From a virus: 64,000 nucleotides of DNA. Of the stretch, positions 4,737 to 38,140 are shown one piece after another. Position 1 is the first letter of the stretch. Each line of letters begins with the position of its first letter. The position numbers were made by a program, and so were the translations under genes. A model generated the notes under the pieces. The model was not told the origin of the DNA, did not search any database, and saw only the letters and a list, made by a program, of their open reading frames with translations. The stretch spans positions 186,001 to 250,000 of the IMG/VR virus record IMGVR_UViG_3300027963_000035, one strand, 5' to 3'.

Positions 4737-4967
4737 TCAATGATAGATGGTAAGAATATCATCCACAACACGAACAAAATAACTGTGGGAGATCTTACAC
4801 TTGGTCAATCCATCTTCTTCGATATTAGACCAAATATTGATTCTATAGTTATATCCGAAAACATTTACAACCTTGATCTTGAAATAATTCTTTGGCTTTT
4901 CAACCTGCTTGAAAAGCAAATTAAGAACTTGGTCGTCACTGATACTAACCGCCTCATTTTTATCCAT
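4737..4967 (-). CDS. Uncharacterised 76-aa protein
   Basis: The start at 4967 is chosen because AAAGGAAA precedes it at good spacing. A longer frame to 5045 would overlap the upstream gene. The protein is small, soluble and beta-rich in appearance. No family is recognised. Confidence 0.55.
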   Translation of the reverse strand: MDKNEAVSISDDQVLNLLFKQVEKPKNYFKIKVVNVFGYNYRINIWSNIEEDGLTKCKISHSYFVRVVDDILTIYH

Positions 4968-5016
4968 GTTTTCCTTTACTTTTTCAGCTTTAAGCTTCAC
5001 TGTATTTATCCTTTCT

Positions 5017-5331
5017 TTAAATAAACCTGTGAGGTTTACAAACAAAAAATCTTAAAATCTTACCCAAATTATACTCGTTTTTGCTCTTGATTATCTTAAC
5101 AGTATCGTGGTCTAGTATCTTGACTTTATCATCTGGGCTCATTGTTAGTTCGCACATTTCGCCCCAAAAAAGACCTAATTCACTATCATGATATTCTATG
5201 TCATGGCAAGGGCTATAAAGTCGATCTTCATTATGATCAATTTCTATAAAAATATGATCGTTATTAAAATGCTCCAGAATTTCTTTGAGTGAAATTTCTC
5301 TAAAACAATCTATGCCCTTATTTTTAGCCAT
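5017..5331 (-). CDS. Uncharacterised 104-aa protein, paralogue of 31297-31611
   Basis: It shares length and layout with the product of 31297-31611. Both have an LKEIL/LGDVL start, a central (I/L)DHxxxKxIK motif, and an end of KPHRFI or KPYSFI. The two are clearly paralogues within one genome, although no outside family is recognised. Confidence 0.65.
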   Translation of the reverse strand: MAKNKGIDCFREISLKEILEHFNNDHIFIEIDHNEDRLYSPCHDIEYHDSELGLFWGEMCELTMSPDDKVKILDHDTVKIIKSKNEYNLGKILRFFVCKPHRFI

Positions 5332-22764: not shown

Positions 22765-23030
22765 GTCCGAAGGGTGGGATTCGAACCCACAGTCTACAAA
22801 TTCAAGTTTGTGTGATTTTCACCACTCCTTGGACTTTGTCTTCACCATATCTTACGATTTAGGTGGTCGCCGTTAAGTCTCTACACGTTCCCTTACGGGC
22901 TTCGCTCGGCATTGCCATATGCTCACGCATTTAGGTTTCACCGAATTTGACGACATCCCATACGAAGTTTCCAATCGTATGGCACGAAAATTCATGAGTT
23001 TGTTGCATTAACCGTTTTGCTACCTTCGGA
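22765..23030 (-). tRNA. tRNA with anticodon CAU (probable Ile2), interrupted by a group I intron
   Basis: Exons are 22994-23030 and 22765-22802. The joined tRNA has a 7-bp acceptor (TCCGAAG / CTTCGGA), an anticodon stem ACAAA/TTTGT with loop CTCATAA, and a T-arm GTGGG TTCGAAT CCCAC. The discriminator is C and no CCA is encoded. CAU could be Met or lysidine-modified Ile2. The tilS gene 16 nt upstream argues for Ile2. The intron sits between positions 36 and 37. Confidence 0.85.
22803..22993 (-). other. Group I intron (191 nt) in tRNA CAU
   Basis: The 5' splice site is after the U of CAU. Exon CAU plus the intron start GAA pairs with an internal TTCGTG, giving the U-G wobble required at P1. 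The intron ends in G. The core contains GTGTAGAGACTTAACGG and GGTGAAGACAAAGTCC, shared with the introns at 27480 and 41808. There is no ORF inside. Confidence 0.85.
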
Positions 23031-26601: not shown

Positions 26602-26683
26602 TGGTTGATGCAGGATTCGAACCTGCGAAGCTAATAGCATTTGATTTACAGTCAAACCCCTTTGACCACTCGGGAAATCAACC
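26602..26683 (-). tRNA. tRNA-Tyr (GUA)
   Basis: The acceptor is GGTTGAT / ATCAACC with discriminator A. The anticodon arm TTTGA CTGTAAA TCAAA gives anticodon GTA. A class II variable arm and T-arm GCAGG TTCGAAT CCTGC follow. No intron. CCA is not encoded. Confidence 0.93.
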
Positions 26684-26687
26684 TATA

Positions 26688-26903
26688 TTATTTAAAGTAG
26701 ACTTCAGTAGCAGCACCCAAAGCAATTGATGATCCTGCTACAACACCAAATGTAAGGAGACATTGCCAAACAATTTCTCCTGTCAATCCACCCCAAATAC
26801 CTGCAATTGCAATAACAGCAGAAGATAAAATCAAAAAGCAAAGGGTGGAACCAACGATCTTTTTTATTTTTAGATTGTTGTTGTTATTGACGATTTTTTT
26901 CAT
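26688..26903 (-). CDS. Small two-helix membrane protein
   Basis: A 71-aa protein with a basic, Asn-rich N-terminus and two membrane helices (about residues 18-36 and 46-66). It lies 4 nt upstream of tRNA-Tyr and would share its transcript. Function unknown. Confidence 0.65.
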   Translation of the reverse strand: MKKIVNNNNNLKIKKIVGSTLCFLILSSAVIAIAGIWGGLTGEIVWQCLLTFGVVAGSSIALGAATEVYFK

Positions 26904-26969
26904 GTTTTCCTTTAGTTGAATAAAAATTTAAAACTCTACTATATATATAGTATAAAGAGTTTTAAATTT

Positions 26970-27428
26970 ATGAAATACACATACACACATGAAACTTTAA
27001 AAGAACTTGTTGAAAGTTCAACATCAGTGAGACAAGTTCTTTTTAAATTAAAATTAGTTGCTGCCGGTGGTAATTACGCCACAATAAAAGCATATATTAA
27101 GAAGTTTAATTTAGACACTTCTCACTTTAAGGGTCACGGATGGTCTAAAGGGTTTGTTCTACCACCAAAAAAACCAATTGAATCATATCTTGTTAAAGGA
27201 AGTAACACTCAAAGTTTCAAACTAAAAAAGAAGTTAATTAGAGAAAAAATCTTTGAACATAAATGCATGAATTGCAAGAATACTCATTGGCTTGGGAATT
27301 TAATTCCAATAGAACTTCACCATAAAGATGGAGATTCTTCAAACAATGAGCTTTCTAATTTAGAAATTCTTTGTTACAACTGCCACGGTTTGACACCAAA
27401 CTTTCGTGGTAAAAACAAGAAAAAATAA
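26970..27428 (+). CDS. HNH homing-type endonuclease
   Basis: A 152-aa protein from MKYTYTHETL. It has an N-terminal HTH-like helix pair, then CMNCKNTHWLGNLIPIELHHKDGDSSNNELSNLEILCYNCH, a canonical HNH zinc-finger nuclease core. It is on the plus strand and ends 1 nt before the 3' end of the intron-containing tRNA-Leu. A perfect palindrome tactatatatatagta lies just upstream of its start. Confidence 0.88.
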   Translation: MKYTYTHETLKELVESSTSVRQVLFKLKLVAAGGNYATIKAYIKKFNLDTSHFKGHGWSKGFVLPPKKPIESYLVKGSNTQSFKLKKKLIREKIFEHKCMNCKNTHWLGNLIPIELHHKDGDSSNNELSNLEILCYNCHGLTPNFRGKNKKK

Positions 27429-27796: not shown

Positions 27797-27868
27797 GGTT
27801 TTTCACTTTAACACACTTTTAAACTTTTTTCAAGTAGAATTTCTAATACTTTTCTGCATAACTATCAT

Positions 27869-29188
27869 TCATTTTACACCTTTAAGGTAATTTTTATATT
27901 CTTCTAAGAAAATCTTTTCTTCATTCTTTGGATTAGAATTAGAGTGGCCTTTTGCTTGAACAACTTTGTTATTTTTAATTTCAATTGTTACTAGTGGTTT
28001 TTGAATTTCAGAGTTTAACCTTAAAAACAAAATAGTAGAATTCTTATTAGCGATATCTTCGTCATAGCTTGCAACGCAATGATTTAGCTTTATTCCTTCT
28101 TGAATTAAATCCTCGTGTTTAACTGGGGCTATTACGCTATACCTTTCATTTTTATATTCATATTTTTTAAAAGTTTTGCAAACTTTAGAGAACCTATTTT
28201 TAAAAGTTCTACTTTTTAAGACCTCATAATTTTTGCTAGTTATATCATGAAGTGTTTTAAGATATCTTGGATACTTATCAAAATCATTTTTCATTTGAAC
28301 GTTCATTTTTGCATAATCATGAAGAATTGATAATGCATCTTCAATATCTTCAATTCCCTGATTAGGCAACCCCCTGCAAATATAATCTGTTAATTTAAAT
28401 TTGTCATAACCCATCTTTATTAAGATATTAAAATATTCATCGTGCATATCTGGAAACCGATTATAGTTGTCAATTGCATACTTTATCACATCTACATTTT
28501 TAACCTCGCACCACCGTTCCAGAGTTGCATAATCGACTAATCTCATATAATCAGCCGGAACACTACTATATTCAGCAACCATTGTATCTAATTTTTCAAT
28601 ATAGTAATCCAAGCTATACTTTTTAAAATCACTTATAGTTTTAATATTATAATCAAAATAGATTTGTGCGAATTCTAGATGGTGGAATTTTTCTTTATTT
28701 TTTTGTAAAAAGTCCCACTTTGCAAATTTTTCAAAATCCCCCATAATCACAGGATTATTTAAAATACTAAAAAGATCGCTCCTATCAGGTACATAGTAAT
28801 CTTCACGGCTGGTGATAATGAAGAATAACTGAATCCATTCTTCTTTGCACAATTTATAAATATCTTTATCTCTCGCCAATCCAGAAAGATTGCCAGATGC
28901 AAATTTTATACATGACTTAGGATTTTTAATAAGAGTATTTGTCTCTGCGTCATAGAACTTATTATCAATCAGAGAATATTTAACATTTGTTTTGTTGCTA
29001 AAATTAAAAATTAAACTTTTCTTGTCCTCAGACTCACTAACACTTTTCAAGTATTGATAGTGCTTAATTTTTGATTCTTTTTTCTTCTTTTCAGCTAAAT
29101 GTATTTGGTTTATAAGTTCTTTGGTTGTGAAACCATTAACTTGTATAGTTGCTGTTTTCTTGCCATTATTAATTTTGATTGTTCTCAT
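27869..29188 (-). CDS. PcfJ-like protein
   Basis: A 439-aa protein. The C-terminal part (EDLIQEGIKLNHCVASY, TILFLRLN, PLVTIEIKNNKVVQAKGHSN) matches the PcfJ-type domain seen in plasmids and phages. The rest is helical and Lys/Tyr/Asp-rich. PcfJ-type proteins are of uncertain function. The start at 29188 (MRTIKIN) is preferred; an upstream start at 29242 would run into the tandem array. Confidence 0.72.
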   Translation of the reverse strand: MRTIKINNGKKTATIQVNGFTTKELINQIHLAEKKKKESKIKHYQYLKSVSESEDKKSLIFNFSNKTNVKYSLIDNKFYDAETNTLIKNPKSCIKFASGNLSGLARDKDIYKLCKEEWIQLFFIITSREDYYVPDRSDLFSILNNPVIMGDFEKFAKWDFLQKNKEKFHHLEFAQIYFDYNIKTISDFKKYSLDYYIEKLDTMVAEYSSVPADYMRLVDYATLERWCEVKNVDVIKYAIDNYNRFPDMHDEYFNILIKMGYDKFKLTDYICRGLPNQGIEDIEDALSILHDYAKMNVQMKNDFDKYPRYLKTLHDITSKNYEVLKSRTFKNRFSKVCKTFKKYEYKNERYSVIAPVKHEDLIQEGIKLNHCVASYDEDIANKNSTILFLRLNSEIQKPLVTIEIKNNKVVQAKGHSNSNPKNEEKIFLEEYKNYLKGVK

Positions 29189-29235
29189 TTTACTTGTTAT
29201 GGACACCCTGTTCGTTATTAAAATCAGAGGGTTTT

Positions 29236-29890
29236 GGTTCACTCTCGCACATTGTTAAAATCGCACAGCTAGGTTCACTAAACCATCATGTTAAATCTTC
29301 TTATTTGGTTCACTCTCGCACATTGTTAAAATACCGGCACTAGGTTCACTCTTCACGCATGTAAAATCAGATTTTATGGTTCACTCGACAACTATGTTAA
29401 AATCGAAGGGCTAGGTTCACTCTTCATCTATGTTAAAATCAAGCAGGTTGGTTCACTCAACTACCTTGTTAAAATATCGAATGATGGTTCACTCACCAAA
29501 TTTGTTAAAATTCCCGACTGTGGTTCACTCCAGAGGTCTGTTTAAATCCGGACATATGGTTCACTCGAATGCGGTGTTAAAATCGCCGTTTGTGATTCAC
29601 TCACTATACATGTAAAATCTCTCACATTGGTTCACTTAACTACCTTGTTGAAATCGTCGGGCTTGGTTCGCTCCGGCAGTATGTAAAAATCCAGTCTGAT
29701 GACTCACTCAACGTTCATGTTAAAATCGTTAATAATGGTTCACTTCTCGTCCTTGTTAAAATCAAGCAGGTTGGTTCACTCCGGCAAAATGAAAAAATCT
29801 GGGCTTCTGGTTCACTCATGGACGCATGTTAAAATCAAGGAAACTGGTTCACTCTTGACTTTTGTTAAAATCTCAGCCACTGGTTCACTC
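29236..29890. repeat. 36-bp tandem array of two alternating boxes with hypervariable spacers
   Basis: About 18 units repeat every 35-37 bp. Each unit is box A (GGTTCACTC), about 8 variable nt, box B (TGTTAAAATC), and about 9 variable nt, so A and B alternate every 17-19 bp. Spacers are mostly unique, but TCGCACAT, AACTACCT and AAGCAGGTT each occur twice in different combinations. Indels break any reading frame. The region between the PcfJ-like gene and 29946 holds nothing else. Confidence 0.9.
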
Positions 29891-29945
29891 CAGTTAATTT
29901 TCAACTTGTTCAAAACTCTATACCCAGACTTTAACTTATTGATTA

Positions 29946-30413
29946 TCATTTAGTAAAAGTGTGCATTATTATGCACTTTTTCAATTCTTTTTCAATTTCT
30001 TTAACACTCATTTTGAAATAATGGGATGGTATCTGTAAGTAATCTCCTACAATAAATTCAAAAAGCATTAATTTACCTTTTGAATTTTTTAGATAAATTT
30101 CTAGTGGTGAATCGTAACAACCACTATTGATTAATTCAACTGTCACTAGGGGCGTACCATCGGTTTCTAAATTACCCACGTTATCAACAATCATGTGATT
30201 AGGGGTAAAAGGTTTGTGCTTCCATTTTTCACGATTTCCATTTTCATCAACAACGTCAAAACATTCACATATAACTTTTTTTATTTGATCGATTTGCTTT
30301 TTGGAAGATTTAACTATAGGCTGTGGGTCGTACGCATCCTCTCCGAGTAAACTGAAGGCGGTGCATGAATCACACTCGCACATTTCGGTATAATAAATTT
30401 TATTTAATTTCAT
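29946..30413 (-). CDS. Uncharacterised 155-aa protein
   Basis: A soluble protein with an N-terminal CECDSC cluster and a C-terminal predicted amphipathic helix. No family is recognised. It lies next to the tandem array, with its stop about 55 bp beyond the last box. Confidence 0.6.
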   Translation of the reverse strand: MKLNKIYYTEMCECDSCTAFSLLGEDAYDPQPIVKSSKKQIDQIKKVICECFDVVDENGNREKWKHKPFTPNHMIVDNVGNLETDGTPLVTVELINSGCYDSPLEIYLKNSKGKLMLFEFIVGDYLQIPSHYFKMSVKEIEKELKKCIIMHTFTK

Positions 30414-30463
30414 TTCTTTGTAACTTTTTCGTCCCTATAAATTTTTGTGACTAATAATAAGAT

Positions 30464-30805
30464 TTAAAAATCACACGCCCCGTCCTCTACAGGATCCATG
30501 TATTCCAGCAAGGGAGTTATTCTATCCTCTGCCATTTCCAGTATTACATCTTCGTCAACGTCTTTTCCTATAACTTTCTTACTTACTATATGAAGATTGT
30601 ATATTTCGTAGAAACAATAACCTTCGCCGTTGTATTCATCGGTTTGTACCGTCAAATCCATTTTTATATCAACCTCGACAAACGAATCTAGGCCGATGAG
30701 AAATTGTAAGTGTATAATTTTGCCGCCCGAAACAAAACCATCTAACTTTCTTTGAATTTTTTGTGTTACGCAAGTGTTGAGAACATCCTTAAAATTTGAT
30801 TTCAT
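30464..30805 (-). CDS. Uncharacterised 113-aa protein
   Basis: An alternating strand-like protein with an acidic C-terminus. No family is recognised. Confidence 0.55.
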   Translation of the reverse strand: MKSNFKDVLNTCVTQKIQRKLDGFVSGGKIIHLQFLIGLDSFVEVDIKMDLTVQTDEYNGEGYCFYEIYNLHIVSKKVIGKDVDEDVILEMAEDRITPLLEYMDPVEDGACDF

Positions 30806-30838
30806 AATTATCTTTTAGTCTCCTTGTTGGTCTTGTCG

Positions 30839-31255
30839 CTATTTCGTGGCTAGAAATCTTTTCCTGTAAATTTTTGCTCGTTCGGCGTCTTTGTTTTTGA
30901 GTCCAGTAGGTACAATTAGTCTACCGTGCCATCCTTCTGGAGCCTTTATATTGGCTTCTACGCACAATCTAAGGACTTTCGGTAGGAGATTACACTCCAA
31001 GCCCCGCAGTTCACCATAGGTGAAGGTAAGGAAAAGGGCTTGTTGCATGATTTTGTGGGCTTCGTGGATTGTTACATCTTTATTTGACAATCTACTTGAT
31101 AAGAGATGTTCTATGTTTCTATCGTATTCTTTTACAAACTCGTCGCACGAAAAGATTATTTTTGCTGCTTTTTTCCTAAAAGATGCGGGTCCGTTTTCAA
31201 AGACGTTAGTTGCCCATGCACGGAGTTTGTTTGCGAGTCTAATTGCTGTGTCCAT
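30839..31255 (-). CDS. Uncharacterised helical 138-aa protein
   Basis: A basic helical protein ending in PEGWHGRLIVPTGLKNKDAERAKIYRKRF. The start at 31255 follows AGAAGAAAC. No family is recognised. Confidence 0.55.
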   Translation of the reverse strand: MDTAIRLANKLRAWATNVFENGPASFRKKAAKIIFSCDEFVKEYDRNIEHLLSSRLSNKDVTIHEAHKIMQQALFLTFTYGELRGLECNLLPKVLRLCVEANIKAPEGWHGRLIVPTGLKNKDAERAKIYRKRFLATK

Positions 31256-31296
31256 GTTTCTTCTCAATAAACTGCACGTACCTAGACTTTAACTTA

Positions 31297-31611
31297 TCAA
31301 ATAAAACTATAAGGTTTTAATGAATAAAAAGTTAAAACAACTCCAACATTATAAGCAGAACTTGGATCTGTTTTTATAACCTTAAAAACATTATGATCAA
31401 TTAATTTAAGAACATCTTTTGAGGAAAGACAACGCATACAATTTTTTCCATCAAAAATTCCAACATCATTCTGTTCGACTTTATCTATTTCTATTTGGCA
31501 GAGAAAGTATTCTTCTTCATCTTTAGACATATCAACTAAAAATTTTTCATTTATACTGTTTAGGACATCGCCTAAAGTGAAATCTTTAAAAAAATTTAAC
31601 TTTTTATTCAT
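31297..31611 (-). CDS. Uncharacterised 104-aa protein, paralogue of 5017-5331
   Basis: Same length and pattern as the gene at 5017: LGDVLNSI start, CQIEID block, LIDHNVFKVIKT, and LKPYSFI end. It shows a duplicated family within the genome. Function unknown. Confidence 0.65.
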   Translation of the reverse strand: MNKKLNFFKDFTLGDVLNSINEKFLVDMSKDEEEYFLCQIEIDKVEQNDVGIFDGKNCMRCLSSKDVLKLIDHNVFKVIKTDPSSAYNVGVVLTFYSLKPYSFI

Positions 31612-31657
31612 TGTTTACTTACCCGGACATTGACTTAAACAGTTTTTCAATAATCTG

Positions 31658-31825
31658 TTACTCTGAGCCACTATTATCTAAACTCTGAAAAAGTGCATCA
31701 ACATCTTCAATACTATATGTGTAGTTAAAATGACCATTATCTTTAGCGTGTTTCATATCTTCTACAAGATTTTCCAAAGCATCCAAGATAATTTCCATAT
31801 CATGCTTTTCAATATAGTAATTCAT
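31658..31825 (-). CDS. Small acidic protein (55 aa)
   Basis: ATG at 31825, TAA at 31658, 55 acidic helical residues (MNYYIEKHDMEIILDALENL start). It sits 6 nt downstream of the IS110-like gene. No family is recognised. Confidence 0.5.
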   Translation of the reverse strand: MNYYIEKHDMEIILDALENLVEDMKHAKDNGHFNYTYSIEDVDALFQSLDNSGSE

Positions 31826-31831
31826 GTTTTT

Positions 31832-32755
31832 CTACTTCTTCAAATACTCATCAATATCCAAAAGATTTGGCTGAATGATATGATGGGTGTGTCCCAAATG
31901 AGCCATGACATAAGGCTTGGGGCAATCAATTCCTTCAACCTTGCACCAAAGTTCATGGACATTACTCAGGAACAACTTAACCACCCAACGCCTTGCCATA
32001 GCATCCACATGACCATCTGGCAGAATTCCACTCTTATACTTAGCGATAACTTCCTTGTTCTTGAAGTTCTTTGAATTCAAGACAGAATCAGCAAGTTCCT
32101 TGAATCCGCCTTCAAGGTTCTTTTTTACAAGAAACTCCTTCTGGGTCTTGTAAAGCTTACCATAGAAGCACTCCTCCTTACCAGAGAACTTCATGAAACT
32201 CTGCCCGACCTTCCAGCACAGGGTTTTAAGGCTGGCGTTCCAGGGACGCTTTTGACCCTTTTCCCACTTACTTGTGGGATCGAGACCAGCATAACGCCAA
32301 ATAGCACCAGCGGTCTTTGCCTTATTGATGTCAATATGAGCAACAAGACCAGCAGTAATCACAGGACCGATTCCGTAAACCTTATCCTTCAAAATCTTTG
32401 CAATCAAAAAACTATCAGTCCAGTGATCCATAGCCCGTTTGATTTGAGTTTCAAGAACTTCTGTTTGATCGTTCAAGAAACTAAAGAGTTCATGAGGCTC
32501 TTTATCCTTGCCAAAAGCGGTGATCTGATTGGTGCTTCGCTTACGATTCTCTTGAATCATATAATAGTAATCAACAATATACCTCACTTCATCCTTGGTG
32601 AGGGTCTTAATCTTATTAGTGAGATCTTTATTGAGCCTAGCAACAGTCCCAAGACTTGTCAGGCTATCTGGCATTAGGCTATCTGCAATCTTCTTGCTTG
32701 AAATGCCCTTGCCGCAAGTGGGACACTTCTTCTTTGTTACACTTTCCTTTGACAT
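31832..32755 (-). CDS. IS110/IS116-type transposase C-domain protein
   Basis: A 307-aa protein with an N-terminal CPTCGKG half-ribbon. A central helix-hairpin-helix region (VYGIGPVITAGLVAHID...AGAIWRYAGLDPTSKW) matches the transposase_20 domain of IS110-family recombinases. I see no N-terminal DEDD catalytic domain and no IS ends, so it is probably a domesticated or accessory DNA-binding protein, not an active element. Confidence 0.68.
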   Translation of the reverse strand: MSKESVTKKKCPTCGKGISSKKIADSLMPDSLTSLGTVARLNKDLTNKIKTLTKDEVRYIVDYYYMIQENRKRSTNQITAFGKDKEPHELFSFLNDQTEVLETQIKRAMDHWTDSFLIAKILKDKVYGIGPVITAGLVAHIDINKAKTAGAIWRYAGLDPTSKWEKGQKRPWNASLKTLCWKVGQSFMKFSGKEECFYGKLYKTQKEFLVKKNLEGGFKELADSVLNSKNFKNKEVIAKYKSGILPDGHVDAMARRWVVKLFLSNVHELWCKVEGIDCPKPYVMAHLGHTHHIIQPNLLDIDEYLKK

Positions 32756-32789
32756 ATTATTTTATCTTTCTATGAAATTATGGGGATCA

Positions 32790-33152
32790 CTACTTCTGCA
32801 AAACGTCCCAGCCCCAAGTATCTGTTCGTTCGGCTGGTGCAACCAAAATAACATCGCTATTGTACTTGTTGCCCTTATGGTCTTGTTCACCCTTGGCTAA
32901 AAGAACCATACAACAAATTACATTACCCGACTTGTTAAACCCATACAGGGGGATTCCGCCCTTGTCGATAGGCTCGTACCATCGTTTGCCGGGAGGCACG
33001 TTGAACGTATTGGTTGTAGTGGGCGTCAATACACGTTCAACATTTCCCTGCCAATTAAGACTCAAGCAGCCGTGACACTGCTCAAGAAGATGAACGTCAC
33101 CAACAACTTCCAAATTACCAATCATTACTTGCTTTTTAGTAACTGTTTTCAT
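32790..33152 (-). CDS. Uncharacterised 120-aa protein
   Basis: The start at 33152 (MKTVTKKQVMIGN) leaves the upstream motif outside the gene. The protein has many predicted strands and a C-terminal AERTDTWGWDVLQK. No family is recognised. Confidence 0.6.
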   Translation of the reverse strand: MKTVTKKQVMIGNLEVVGDVHLLEQCHGCLSLNWQGNVERVLTPTTTNTFNVPPGKRWYEPIDKGGIPLYGFNKSGNVICCMVLLAKGEQDHKGNKYNSDVILVAPAERTDTWGWDVLQK

Positions 33153-33187
33153 GTTTTGTTTCTTTTGTTTTATGGAGACTACTCTCA

Positions 33188-33207
33188 ACCGTACCGGAAG
33201 GAAACTT
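33188..33207 (-). promoter_or_regulatory. Copy of the 20-bp promoter-like motif
   Basis: Minus-strand sense AAGTTTCCTTCCGGTACGGT, 36 nt upstream of the start at 33152. Confidence 0.82.
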
Positions 33208-33217
33208 GTTTGTTTTA

Positions 33218-33478
33218 TTATTTGTCAGAATCAGTTAGTTCAATATCTGCCTCAACTGAGTCATCCACGGGGTCGATGCTATGAATATCATAATCACAGG
33301 GAAATCCACCGTGACCCTCCATAACCTCTTCCCACTCAAGTTCAATATCATCATCATTAATCATATCGAGATCAAAGTTATCTTTAATATCTTCTACGCT
33401 ATCTGCAATTACCACAATCGTGGCACGTTCCCTAACACTAGGGACTTCACGCTCAATAGTAATTTCAAATTTAGGCAT
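33218..33478 (-). CDS. Uncharacterised acidic 86-aa protein
   Basis: A very acidic protein with an N-terminal KFEITIEREV strand and a DIKDNFDLDMINDDDIELEWEEV segment. The layout resembles small beta-alpha phage proteins with no known role. A motif copy is 44 nt upstream. Confidence 0.6.
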   Translation of the reverse strand: MPKFEITIEREVPSVRERATIVVIADSVEDIKDNFDLDMINDDDIELEWEEVMEGHGGFPCDYDIHSIDPVDDSVEADIELTDSDK

Positions 33479-33517
33479 ATTAATTATTTAATGGGAGGTT
33501 TGGGAGGTTCGCTACCC

Positions 33518-34390
33518 TCAAACCGTACCGGAAGGAAACTCGAGTGTTTCAAAAACACTTTCAAGTTCTTCTGATAATCTTCCTTTGATTACTTCGACTG
33601 CATATTGATAAAGAAATTCTGGACTAGTCTTGATGACTTCTTCTGCTTCAATCCATCTTCCTTTAATTACATCTTTAGCGTAACCACAGGCATACTCTGG
33701 ACTAGTTTTTATGGTTTCTTCTGCGTCAACCCAGCGACCTTCGATTACGTCTCTAGCATAATAATAGGCATATCGTGGATCAGTTTTAATAATCCCTTCT
33801 GATTCGATCCATCTGCCTTTAATTATATCTTTGGCGTAAAGATACATATAGTGGATTAAAACCCTCTCAGCTTCAATCCATCTATCTTTTAGGACATCTT
33901 TGGTGTAATAGTAAACATATGCAGGACTAGTTTTAATAATTTTTTCTGCTTCAATCCAGCGATCTTTAATTATATCTCTAGCATAGAGATAGGCATAATA
34001 TGGGTCAGTCTTAATAATCTCTTCTGCTTCATTCCAACGATTTTTAATTACATCTCTGGAATAAAGATAAGCATACTGGGGATCACTCTTGATAATCTCT
34101 TCGCACTCAATCCACCGTCCCTTGATAACATCTTTGGCATAATGATGGATATATTCTGGACGGCTATTCTTTATGATTTCTTCAACTTCAATCCACCGGT
34201 CTTTAATTACATCCCTAGCATAGCAGTAAGCATAATATGGTTCTGTCTTAATAATTGAAAACAAAGCTGTCTTTTGAATATTGTTGGGCTTTTCCCCATT
34301 AATCATAGTTCCATTTTTAATGAAACAATCAACATCCTCATAAGTAACGTTTGAGATGAACTGGTGATATTTTTCTGAGTAACTAGTCAT
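33518..34390 (-). CDS. Protein of nine tandem 26-residue YA-x-DVIKGRW repeats
   Basis: A 290-aa protein. From about residue 55 it consists of some nine copies of a 26-residue unit, YARDVIKDRWIEAEEIIKT plus a variable SPEYAYxx end. It is the clearest member of a family found in at least six genes here. One copy is shortened (ERVLIHYMYLYAKD). The helical pattern suggests an alpha-solenoid like Sel1/TPR proteins, probably for protein binding. The high similarity between units implies recent expansion. Confidence 0.8.
   Translation of the reverse strand: MTSYSEKYHQFISNVTYEDVDCFIKNGTMINGEKPNNIQKTALFSIIKTEPYYAYCYARDVIKDRWIEVEEIIKNSRPEYIHHYAKDVIKGRWIECEEIIKSDPQYAYLYSRDVIKNRWNEAEEIIKTDPYYAYLYARDIIKDRWIEAEKIIKTSPAYVYYYTKDVLKDRWIEAERVLIHYMYLYAKDIIKGRWIESEGIIKTDPRYAYYYARDVIEGRWVDAEETIKTSPEYACGYAKDVIKGRWIEAEEVIKTSPEFLYQYAVEVIKGRLSEELESVFETLEFPSGTV
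33522..33541 (-). promoter_or_regulatory. Copy of the 20-bp promoter-like motif inside a coding end
   Basis: Minus-strand sense GAGTTTCCTTCCGGTACGGT. It encodes the last residues (EFPSGTV) of the upstream repeat protein and drives the gene starting at 33478. Confidence 0.8.
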
Positions 34391-34456
34391 TTTCACCTCA
34401 CAACTCTATTTCAGCTTCAACTTGATAGTCAGATATCATTTTGGTTCTGCTTTTGT

Positions 34457-34645
34457 TTATCCCGGTATTTCACTCTCTAATCTATACAGCATTTCAAACA
34501 AAGGATCAAAATTTCCTTCATTCACTAAATCAATAGGTTTTTTACCGTTAAAAGCTTTATTTGGGGTTTGCAACCAATCGTTTGCATATTCTTCCTTAAC
34601 AATAGAAGATAGCCTTTCTTTGAATTCAGTAAATTTTTCGGTCAT
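34457..34645 (-). CDS. Stand-alone Xre/MbcA/ParS toxin-binding domain (DUF2384)
   Basis: A 62-aa protein. NDWLQTPNKAFNGKKPIDLVNEGNFDPLFEMLYRLE matches the C-terminal toxin-binding domain of MbcA/ParS/Xre antitoxins, including the W-L-x-T-P-N and G-x-x-P-x-D-L signatures. The usual N-terminal DNA-binding HTH is absent, and no RES-type toxin gene is adjacent. It could neutralise host RES toxins. The start at 34645 lies 19 nt downstream of the tRNA-like gene's 3' end. Confidence 0.8.
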   Translation of the reverse strand: MTEKFTEFKERLSSIVKEEYANDWLQTPNKAFNGKKPIDLVNEGNFDPLFEMLYRLESEIPG

Positions 34646-34663
34646 TGTTTTTTTCTTTGGCCA

Positions 34664-34764
34664 GGGCGAATGGGTGGAATCGAACCACCACAAGGGCATT
34701 TGTTTGCCTACTCTGCTGTCGCAGTTCGGAACTTCCCTCACGCTACCACTACGCTACATTCACC
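34664..34764 (-). tRNA. tRNA-like gene with oversized anticodon region
   Basis: The acceptor (GGTGAAT / ATTCGCC), D-arm (AGCG TAGTGGTAG CGTG) and T-arm (GGTGG TTCGATT CCACC) are clear. Between GAGGG and CCCTT lie 37 nt instead of 7. These include possible hairpins AGTT-CCG-AACT, CTGC-GACA-GCAG and GGCA-TGCC. No isotype can be read. It may contain an insertion or be a decayed tRNA. No CCA is encoded. Confidence 0.6.
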
Positions 34765-34803
34765 ATGATGAGTATAATCAAAAATTTTATTTTGTAAAGA
34801 TCT

Positions 34804-37567: not shown

Positions 37568-38140
37568 TTATAGTCTGACATCAGAAACAACTTCATAGGT
37601 AGTATGACAAAGTTTCTTTGCTTCTGCAAGTTCTTTTACAATTTCCTTTGAGCGATTATGCCAATAGGTCACATTATTTTTTGCAACATCGGCATTTTCA
37701 TAACGAATAGCATGACAGTTTCTCCACAACCAGAAAAATAAAGGATCTTTTTGTTGAACAAAACTCCACAACCAGAAAAATAAAGGATCTTTTTGTTGAA
37801 CAAAACTCCACAACCAGAAAAATAAAGGATATTTTTGTTGAACAAAAAATCCACGAAATTCTCCATTGCTGTAGTACTGCTCGACAACTCTAAATTTGAT
37901 TTTTTTATAAACTTCTACAACCCTATTTTTAAAGGGTTTAAATATATATTCATTTTTTTGAGCTTCATCAAGAGTAATAGGATAGAAATGACAATCTTTA
38001 TACAGCCAAAAAAATAATGGATTTTGTTTTTGGATAAAATATCCAGTAGATCCAGAGGGATAAATTCTTTTAATAATTCTAGTGCGATTGAACATTTTAT
38101 TTACCTCTTGTAATATGTTGTTTAGTGGTTTAATTTTCAT
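37568..38140 (-). CDS. Phage protein with tandem FVQQKxPLFFWLW repeats
   Basis: A 190-aa protein; an alternative start at 38095 has a better ribosome site (AAGAGGTAAATAAA). It contains repeated FxxQKxPLFFWLW units. The first two are separate and diverged, then three copies are nearly identical (residues about 110-145). Similar QxK..FFWxW segments occur in small phage proteins of unknown role. Confidence 0.65.
   Translation of the reverse strand: MKIKPLNNILQEVNKMFNRTRIIKRIYPSGSTGYFIQKQNPLFFWLYKDCHFYPITLDEAQKNEYIFKPFKNRVVEVYKKIKFRVVEQYYSNGEFRGFFVQQKYPLFFWLWSFVQQKDPLFFWLWSFVQQKDPLFFWLWRNCHAIRYENADVAKNNVTYWHNRSKEIVKELAEAKKLCHTTYEVVSDVRL
37722..37847 (-). repeat. Three tandem 42-bp copies within a gene
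   Basis: Units starting at 37722, 37764 and 37806 are almost identical and encode 14 residues each in frame. The near-identity implies a recent expansion. Confidence 0.9.

What the first reader, a model, noticed from the sequence alone, without database searches (positions are those of the whole stretch)
29236..29890. Tandem array of alternating boxes separated by hypervariable 8- and 9-nt spacers
About 18 units of GGTTCACTC - N8 - TGTTAAAATC - N9. The boxes are nearly invariant while the spacers differ, yet three spacer words recur in new combinations. Unit lengths of 35-37 bp break reading frames, so it is not a protein repeat. The 17-19 bp box spacing suits a protein bound along the DNA, such as iterons of a replication origin, a partition site or a packaging site. 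The conserved-box/variable-spacer layout also invites the idea of a recombination or barcode cassette. It does not fit any CRISPR or integron type I know.
Basis: seen in the sequence. Interest (0 to 1): 0.85.

Follow-up and report, generated by a model that had tools for sequence, protein, structure and literature searches.

The report
Phage TIGR guide-RNA array with TasA
The striped repeat is a TIGR array, a recently described cassette of short paired RNA guides that steers a partner protein (here a TasA without a cutting domain, encoded 1.9 kb away) to DNA; the system is already known, but this large phage and its close relatives show how the guides are swapped one at a time.

Summary
In detail: 18 complete units lie at window 29235-29890, with nearly invariant boxes and variable 8-nt spacers, and three spacers recur with new partners. 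The layout is better read as an 18-bp beat: a 10-nt box plus an 8-nt spacer, with two boxes alternating. It is a dual-repeat TIGR array of the TIGR-Tas systems (Faure et al., Science 2025, PMC12045711). The partner gene is window 31832-32755 (-). It passes NCBIfam's TIGR_Tas model (184.7 bits, cut-off 100), and its model matches only TasH and TasR structures. It has no nuclease domain, so it is a TasA. In 63 of 63 array loci with a tas gene, the array is co-directional with tas when read as GAGTGAACCA-N8-GATTTTAACA-N8. A protein-first search found a 36-nt array at 72 of 80 tas loci. No target beyond chance was found in this phage or its relatives. New here: between two phages about 94% identical, half the units differ. 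Across 88 arrays, single spacers are shared slot-for-slot 30 times and across slots once, so guides appear to be exchanged box to box. New member of a known kind.

The parts
29235..29890 (-). TIGR array: 18 units of edge repeat GAGTGAACCA, spacer A (8 nt), loop repeat GATTTTAACA, spacer B (8 nt), with a closing 19th edge repeat
   Evidence: Unit walk; strand inferred from co-direction with tas in all 63 loci and from the protein-first search
29216..29225 (-). Degenerate loop-like box (TATTAAAATC on +) beyond the last edge repeat, followed by a 9-nt gap; possible decayed half-unit
   Evidence: Read in sequence; absent at the G004 array end; weak
31832..32755 (-). tasA: 307-aa Tas protein (Nop-type coiled coil plus RNA-binding domain), no HNH or RuvC domain
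   Evidence: NCBIfam NF052498.1 184.7 bits, cut-off 100; PDB TasR 9mty E 3e-28 and TasH 21kl E 8e-18; AlphaFold2 pLDDT 89; Foldseek hits with E<=0.001 are TasH/TasR only
29872..31391 (-). Segment with three small unknown ORFs (29946-30413, 30464-30805, 30839-31267) between array and tasA; absent in the close relative G004
   Evidence: blastn G000 vs G004: 29797-29871 and 31392-34770 are adjacent in G004; no Pfam or PHROG hits
27843..29231 (-). Segment with a PcfJ-like gene (27869-29188) directly after the array's 3' end; absent in G004, where the array abuts the left flank
   Evidence: Pfam PcfJ E 6.5e-25

Best explanation
The feature is a dual-repeat TIGR array. It is most likely transcribed from the minus strand, in the direction of the tasA gene at 31832-32755. 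The transcript would be cut within the edge repeats into about 36-nt tigRNAs (half edge - spacer A - loop - spacer B - half edge). A TasA dimer would hold each tigRNA by the 3' ends (box C) and 5' ends (box D) of the two repeats. Spacer A would pair with one DNA strand and spacer B with the other, so 16 nt in all address a target. Because this TasA has no nuclease, the likely outcome is binding and bending of DNA (blocking transcription or replication of a competing element, or regulation), not cutting. Shown here: array anatomy, protein family, fold, absence of a nuclease, strand relation and box covariation. Inferred from the published systems: transcription, 36-nt processing and dual-strand pairing. 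The target and purpose are unknown.
For: The partner protein meets NCBIfam's TIGR_Tas equivalog model: 184.7 bits against a cut-off of 100. A profile of 39 relatives finds TasR (3e-28), TasH (8e-18) and IS621 (2e-6) in the PDB. The AlphaFold2 model (pLDDT 89) matches only TasH/TasR chains at E<=0.001. DNA-first: of 107 array loci found by the box pattern alone, 63 hold a tas ORF in the fetched stretch, always antisense to GGTTCACTC. A further search of 38 whole records finds Tas in 25. Protein-first: 72 of 80 best tas loci have a 36-nt array (shuffles never exceed one link). 55 of 80 have the GAGTGAACC edge on the tas strand and 0 on the other. The last base of edge and loop (box C) covaries: A/A 59, G/G 7, C/C 1; the only exception, L036, is a 12-bp tandem repeat, not an array. 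Geometry (8-12-nt alternating repeats, 8-9-nt spacers, 36-nt units, solo Nop protein) is as published (PMC12045711).
Against: No transcription or small-RNA data. tasA and the array are 1.9 kb apart in this phage, although adjacent in G003 and next to a two-repeat array stub in G004. The array ends with full edge repeats rather than truncated ones, and no convincing terminator follows it on the minus strand. No DNA target beyond chance was found.
Confidence: 0.95

Rival explanations
1. The array is a row of protein-binding sites on DNA (iterons, parS-like centromere, packaging site), and the Tas-like protein is a DNA-binding relative of IS110 transposases that coats it.
For: Regular 18-bp beat. 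The Tas protein is annotated as transposase in PHROGs and weakly matches Pfam Transposase_20.
Against: Spacers are individually conserved or wholly replaced between relatives, not decaying freely: 131 identical, 22 with 1-2 changes, 51 replaced. Same-slot sharing is 30 against 1 across slots. The nearest solved proteins hold 36-nt RNAs made from just such arrays. The array strand is fixed relative to tas.
Confidence: 0.03
2. The array is a decayed, non-functional TIGR array kept by chance.
For: A few boxes carry substitutions or 1-nt indels. In G004 a part of the array is broken and an insertion splits it.
Against: The tasA frame is intact in window, G003 and G004. Boxes are kept in 18 of 18 units. 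Units are exactly conserved in 9 of 18 slots although other slots are replaced.
Confidence: 0.07
3. The array is an IS110-type bridge-RNA source for a transposon.
For: Tas and IS110 share the Nop/Transposase_20 region.
Against: There is no DEDD (RuvC-like) domain in the 307-aa protein. Foldseek finds TasH/TasR and not IS110 at E<=0.001. The score against the NCBIfam IS110 model is 26.7 of the 140 needed. Bridge RNA is a single two-loop RNA, not an array of 18 units.
Confidence: 0.01

Closest known systems
TIGR-Tas, dual-repeat arrays with TasA (for example Flavonifractor plautii FpTIGR; Faure et al. 2025, PMC12045711)
   Same: Solo Nop-domain protein; two alternating short repeats; two spacers per 36-nt unit; array on the strand of tas; box C covaries between edge and loop.
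   Different: Spacers are 8 nt (Fp has 9). Repeat ends are GA...CCA/ACA rather than the UG...CCA given for TasR. The array is 1.9 kb from tasA in this phage. 18 units, where 5-15 is most often reported.
TIGR-TasH of Salicola phage CGphi29
   Same: The only isolate phage among 50,697 records with a related Tas (24% identity); 16 nt of spacer per unit according to the paper.
   Different: Carries an N-terminal HNH nuclease; the window protein has none.
IS110/IS621 bridge-RNA transposases
   Same: Shared C-terminal Nop-like RNA-binding region (PDB 8wt6, E 2e-6).
   Different: No DEDD domain and no transposon ends; array instead of one bridge RNA.
CRISPR arrays
   Same: Conserved repeats alternating with variable guide-like spacers.
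   Different: 10-nt repeats of two kinds and 8-nt spacers; no CRISPR-length repeats and no PADLOC hit for the two neighbours tested.

Membership tests
TIGR-Tas (dual-repeat) | Nop-domain Tas protein encoded next to the array | tested here: met
   NF052498.1 184.7 bits, cut-off 100; PDB profile and fold match to TasR/TasH; gene 1.9 kb from the array, adjacent to it in G003 and G004
TIGR-Tas (dual-repeat) | Two alternating 8-12-nt repeats with ~9-nt (8-nt in SpTIGR) spacers, 36-nt unit | tested here: met
   18 units, 10-nt edge and loop, 8-nt spacers
TIGR-Tas (dual-repeat) | Box C/D ends covary between edge and loop repeats | tested here: met
   Last base A/A 59 loci, G/G 7, C/C 1, one exception, a 12-bp tandem repeat that is not an array
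TIGR-Tas (dual-repeat) | Array begins and ends with truncated edge repeats and is followed by a rho-independent terminator | tested here: inconclusive
   L032 arrays show truncated edges; the window array has full edges at both ends and no clear minus-strand terminator
TIGR-Tas (dual-repeat) | Processing into 36-nt tigRNAs bound by Tas | not testable with these tools
   Needs small-RNA sequencing
TIGR-Tas (dual-repeat) | Spacers A and B pair with opposite strands of a DNA target | tested here: inconclusive
   No excess over control geometries in 1.9 Mb of phage DNA. Two one-mismatch self hits, permutation p 0.08-0.22
TasA subtype | No nuclease domain fused to the Nop domain | tested here: met
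   Alignment of 39 Tas proteins and the model show only coiled coil plus C-terminal domain after ~50 poorly ordered residues; PDB alignment starts after the TasR RuvC region
CRISPR array | One 25-36-nt repeat, spacers of similar size, cas genes | tested here: not met
   Repeats 10 nt of two kinds; no PADLOC hit for tasA or the PcfJ-like neighbour
IS110 transposon | DEDD catalytic domain plus Transposase_20 | tested here: not met
   Only a sub-threshold Transposase_20 hit (20.9 of 21.3 bits); IS110 equivalog 26.7 of 140 bits
Iterons / replication origin | Repeats bound by an adjacent Rep protein | tested here: not met
   The flanking genes tested have no replication-protein hit; the associated gene is Tas. 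GC skew was not examined

The most novel reading that the evidence does not exclude
TIGR arrays in phages evolve by box-to-box exchange of single spacers, mostly between units one or two apart, rather than by whole-unit addition. This re-pairs A and B half-guides and makes new 16-nt specificities combinatorially, and might itself be the diversification mechanism of these systems, which lack any known adaptation genes.
Probability: 0.35. Interest if true: 0.7.

Novelty: new member of a known kind. Interest (0 to 1): 0.42.

Why it matters
The system itself was described in 2025, but its discoverers left open what nuclease-less TasA does, what natural spacers target and how arrays grow. This phage has a sister (G004, 323 kb, ~94% identical, syntenic) in which the same array has changed, and IMG/VR holds at least 555 related tas loci, many with arrays, so the question of array growth can be attacked by comparison. 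The pattern found (same-slot exchange of single spacers, arrays identical at >=99.5% flank identity and half changed in this sister pair) is a concrete, testable model. For annotation, it shows that phage 'transposase' PHROG 4285 and NCBI's 'TIGR-Tas endonuclease' include TasA proteins with no nuclease.

Tried and rejected
DNA similarity search of the array in phage records: none. The PcfJ-like neighbour as the array partner: no relatives found with it, and it is absent next to the G004 array. The bacterial contig L013 (Nitrospinota) is a single match and fits chance for 19 specified bases in that collection. Self- and cross-targeting was tested with 1574 distinct units in four pairings, gaps 0-2 and up to one mismatch, with two of the pairings as controls: no excess. 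Whole-genome self tests for five phages: no excess. Two one-mismatch hits of units 1 and 2 lie in the phage's own structural genes (G000 ~26402 and ~75777), but permutation gives p 0.08-0.22. IMG/VR scans for these two target words gave 12 and more than 120 scattered hits that could not be told from chance. The idea that the recurring GGTACGG element is a promoter for the operon: flanks of its copies are not alike. The target geometry in the paper's wording is not fully consistent (cut position versus overhang), so both possible geometries were tested.

Full report
Observation. The array is real and exact. On the + strand there are 18 complete units from 29235 to 29890: 14 of 36 bp, three of 35 and one of 37. 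The composite pattern occurs nowhere else in the 251-kb virus record, and not at all in reverse controls. The base before GGTTCACTC is mostly T, so both boxes are 10 nt and both spacers 8 nt; the beat is 18 bp.

What it is. The pattern in IMG/VR first gave two jumbo-size relatives (L011 in a 187-kb record, L012 in a 323-kb record). The looser box pair then gave over a hundred stretches in phages of 32-67% GC. The gene that recurs beside these arrays is a 263-404-aa relative of the IS110 C-terminal region; the window copy is 31832-32755 (-). This matched my recollection of TIGR-Tas, which I then checked in the primary paper (PMC12045711). The match is complete in sequence terms. NCBIfam's TIGR_Tas equivalog model gives 184.7 bits against a cut-off of 100. 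A profile of 39 relatives finds TasR (9mty) at 3e-28 and TasH (21kl) at 8e-18 in the PDB. An AlphaFold2 model of pLDDT 89 has TasH and TasR chains as its only matches at E<=0.001. There is no nuclease domain: after about 50 loosely ordered residues the protein is the paired coiled-coil helices (54-84, 89-115) and the C-terminal domain. It is therefore a TasA, although NCBI's family name says endonuclease.

Association, tested both ways. DNA-first: of 107 loci with at least five units, 63 hold a tas ORF in the fetched stretch, and all 63 have it on the strand opposite to GGTTCACTC. When 38 whole records (33 not yet credited, five complete) are searched for the family, 25 have it; ten of the 13 misses are records under 35 kb, the largest being 73 kb. 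Protein-first, without using the box sequence: 72 of the 80 best tas loci have a 36-nt periodic array where block-shuffled sequence never gives more than one link. GAGTGAACC occurs at least four times on the tas strand in 55 loci and on the other strand in none. So the RNA strand is most likely the minus strand in the window: GAGTGAACCA - A - GATTTTAACA - B. The last base of the two repeats covaries between loci (A/A 59, G/G 7, C/C 1; the one exception, L036, is a 12-bp tandem repeat), as expected if a symmetric Tas dimer reads both repeats at box C.

How it probably works. From the published systems: the array transcript is cut in the edge repeats to 36-nt tigRNAs, and the two spacers pair with opposite strands of a DNA target. 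For nuclease-less TasA the paper itself lists the function as open and suggests blocking of transcription or replication, or help to integrases. I commit to RNA-guided DNA binding without cutting as the molecular activity, and rate interference with competing elements as more likely than self-regulation. I found no target in the phage's own genome beyond chance, and spacer GC (0.44 and 0.49 for the two slots) is higher than the surrounding genome (0.35). This last argument is weak: across 75 array loci spacer GC averages about 0.44 while local genome GC ranges from 0.32 to 0.67, so duplex strength may set it.

What is new here: array turnover. G000 (this phage) and G004 are syntenic at about 94% overall and 96-98% around the array. 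Nine of 18 units are identical; the other slots differ mainly by whole-spacer replacement or missing units. One G004 unit (AACTACCT/GAAGGGCT) joins halves found in two different window units, and one window unit (AACTACCT/GTCGGGCT) does so with G004 halves. The array borders are insertion sites: a PcfJ-gene segment (27843-29231) and a three-ORF segment (29872-31391) are present in the window and absent in G004, while G004 has 2.4 kb inserted within the array. Over nine pairs of relatives, spacers in aligned slots are bimodal: 131 identical, 22 with one or two changes, 51 replaced. Arrays are identical at >=99.5% flank identity and mostly changed at 80-90%. Within 88 arrays, two units share exactly one spacer with an unrelated partner 30 times. 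Sharing is always in the same slot, against one case across slots. Full duplications number 4 and near-full ones 10, and 20 of the 30 lie one or two units apart; chance sharing is about 2. The simplest reading is exchange or copying of single spacers between flanking boxes, which re-pairs half-guides. Limits: the sampled loci were found with the GGTTCACTC box, some are the same virus in several samples (I skipped arrays sharing more than half their units, but the window and G004 both count), and no mechanism was observed directly.

What I could not settle: expression and processing, natural targets, and whether tasA and the array share a transcript in this phage now that 1.5 kb has been inserted between them.

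Verdict. A well-supported TIGR-TasA system in a jumbo phage: a new member of a known kind. The interest lies in the comparative handle on array evolution, not in the discovery of a new kind of repeat.

Noticed in passing
window 22765-23027 (-): A tRNA gene appears to be split by a short group I intron (Rfam RF00028, 59 bits, 22810-23003), with the acceptor stem halves TCCGAAG and CTTCGGA on either side.
   Followed up: partly
window 3792, 8244, 18760, 27778, 33189, 33523, 49652, 54134 (core CCGGTACGG, - strand): A ~20-nt element, close to AGTTTCCYTCCGGTACGGTT, recurs 8 times in the window, 14 times in G000 and 16 times in G004, all on one strand, mostly around gene junctions; a variant is seen in G003. 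Possibly a phage RNA element or processing site; unexplained.
   Followed up: partly
window 33518-34396 (-): Protein of about eight ~26-aa repeats (DRWIEAEEIIKTDPYYAYLYARDVIK) near tasA; a similar repeat gene lies near the array in G003 (L011 about 4870-5080).
   Followed up: no
window 37722-37847: Three 42-bp tandem copies at 98% identity.
   Followed up: no
window 26602-27428: A tRNA-Tyr gene beside an HNH (likely homing) endonuclease gene on the other strand.
   Followed up: no
window 27843-29231 and 29872-31391; L012 62-2440: Array borders, and in G004 the array interior, are places where phage genes were inserted or lost between two close relatives.
   Followed up: partly
L012 3722-4090: The sister phage G004 has what looks like a tmRNA gene and a tRNA gene just upstream of its array on the displayed strand (by eye, not run through ARAGORN).
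   Followed up: no
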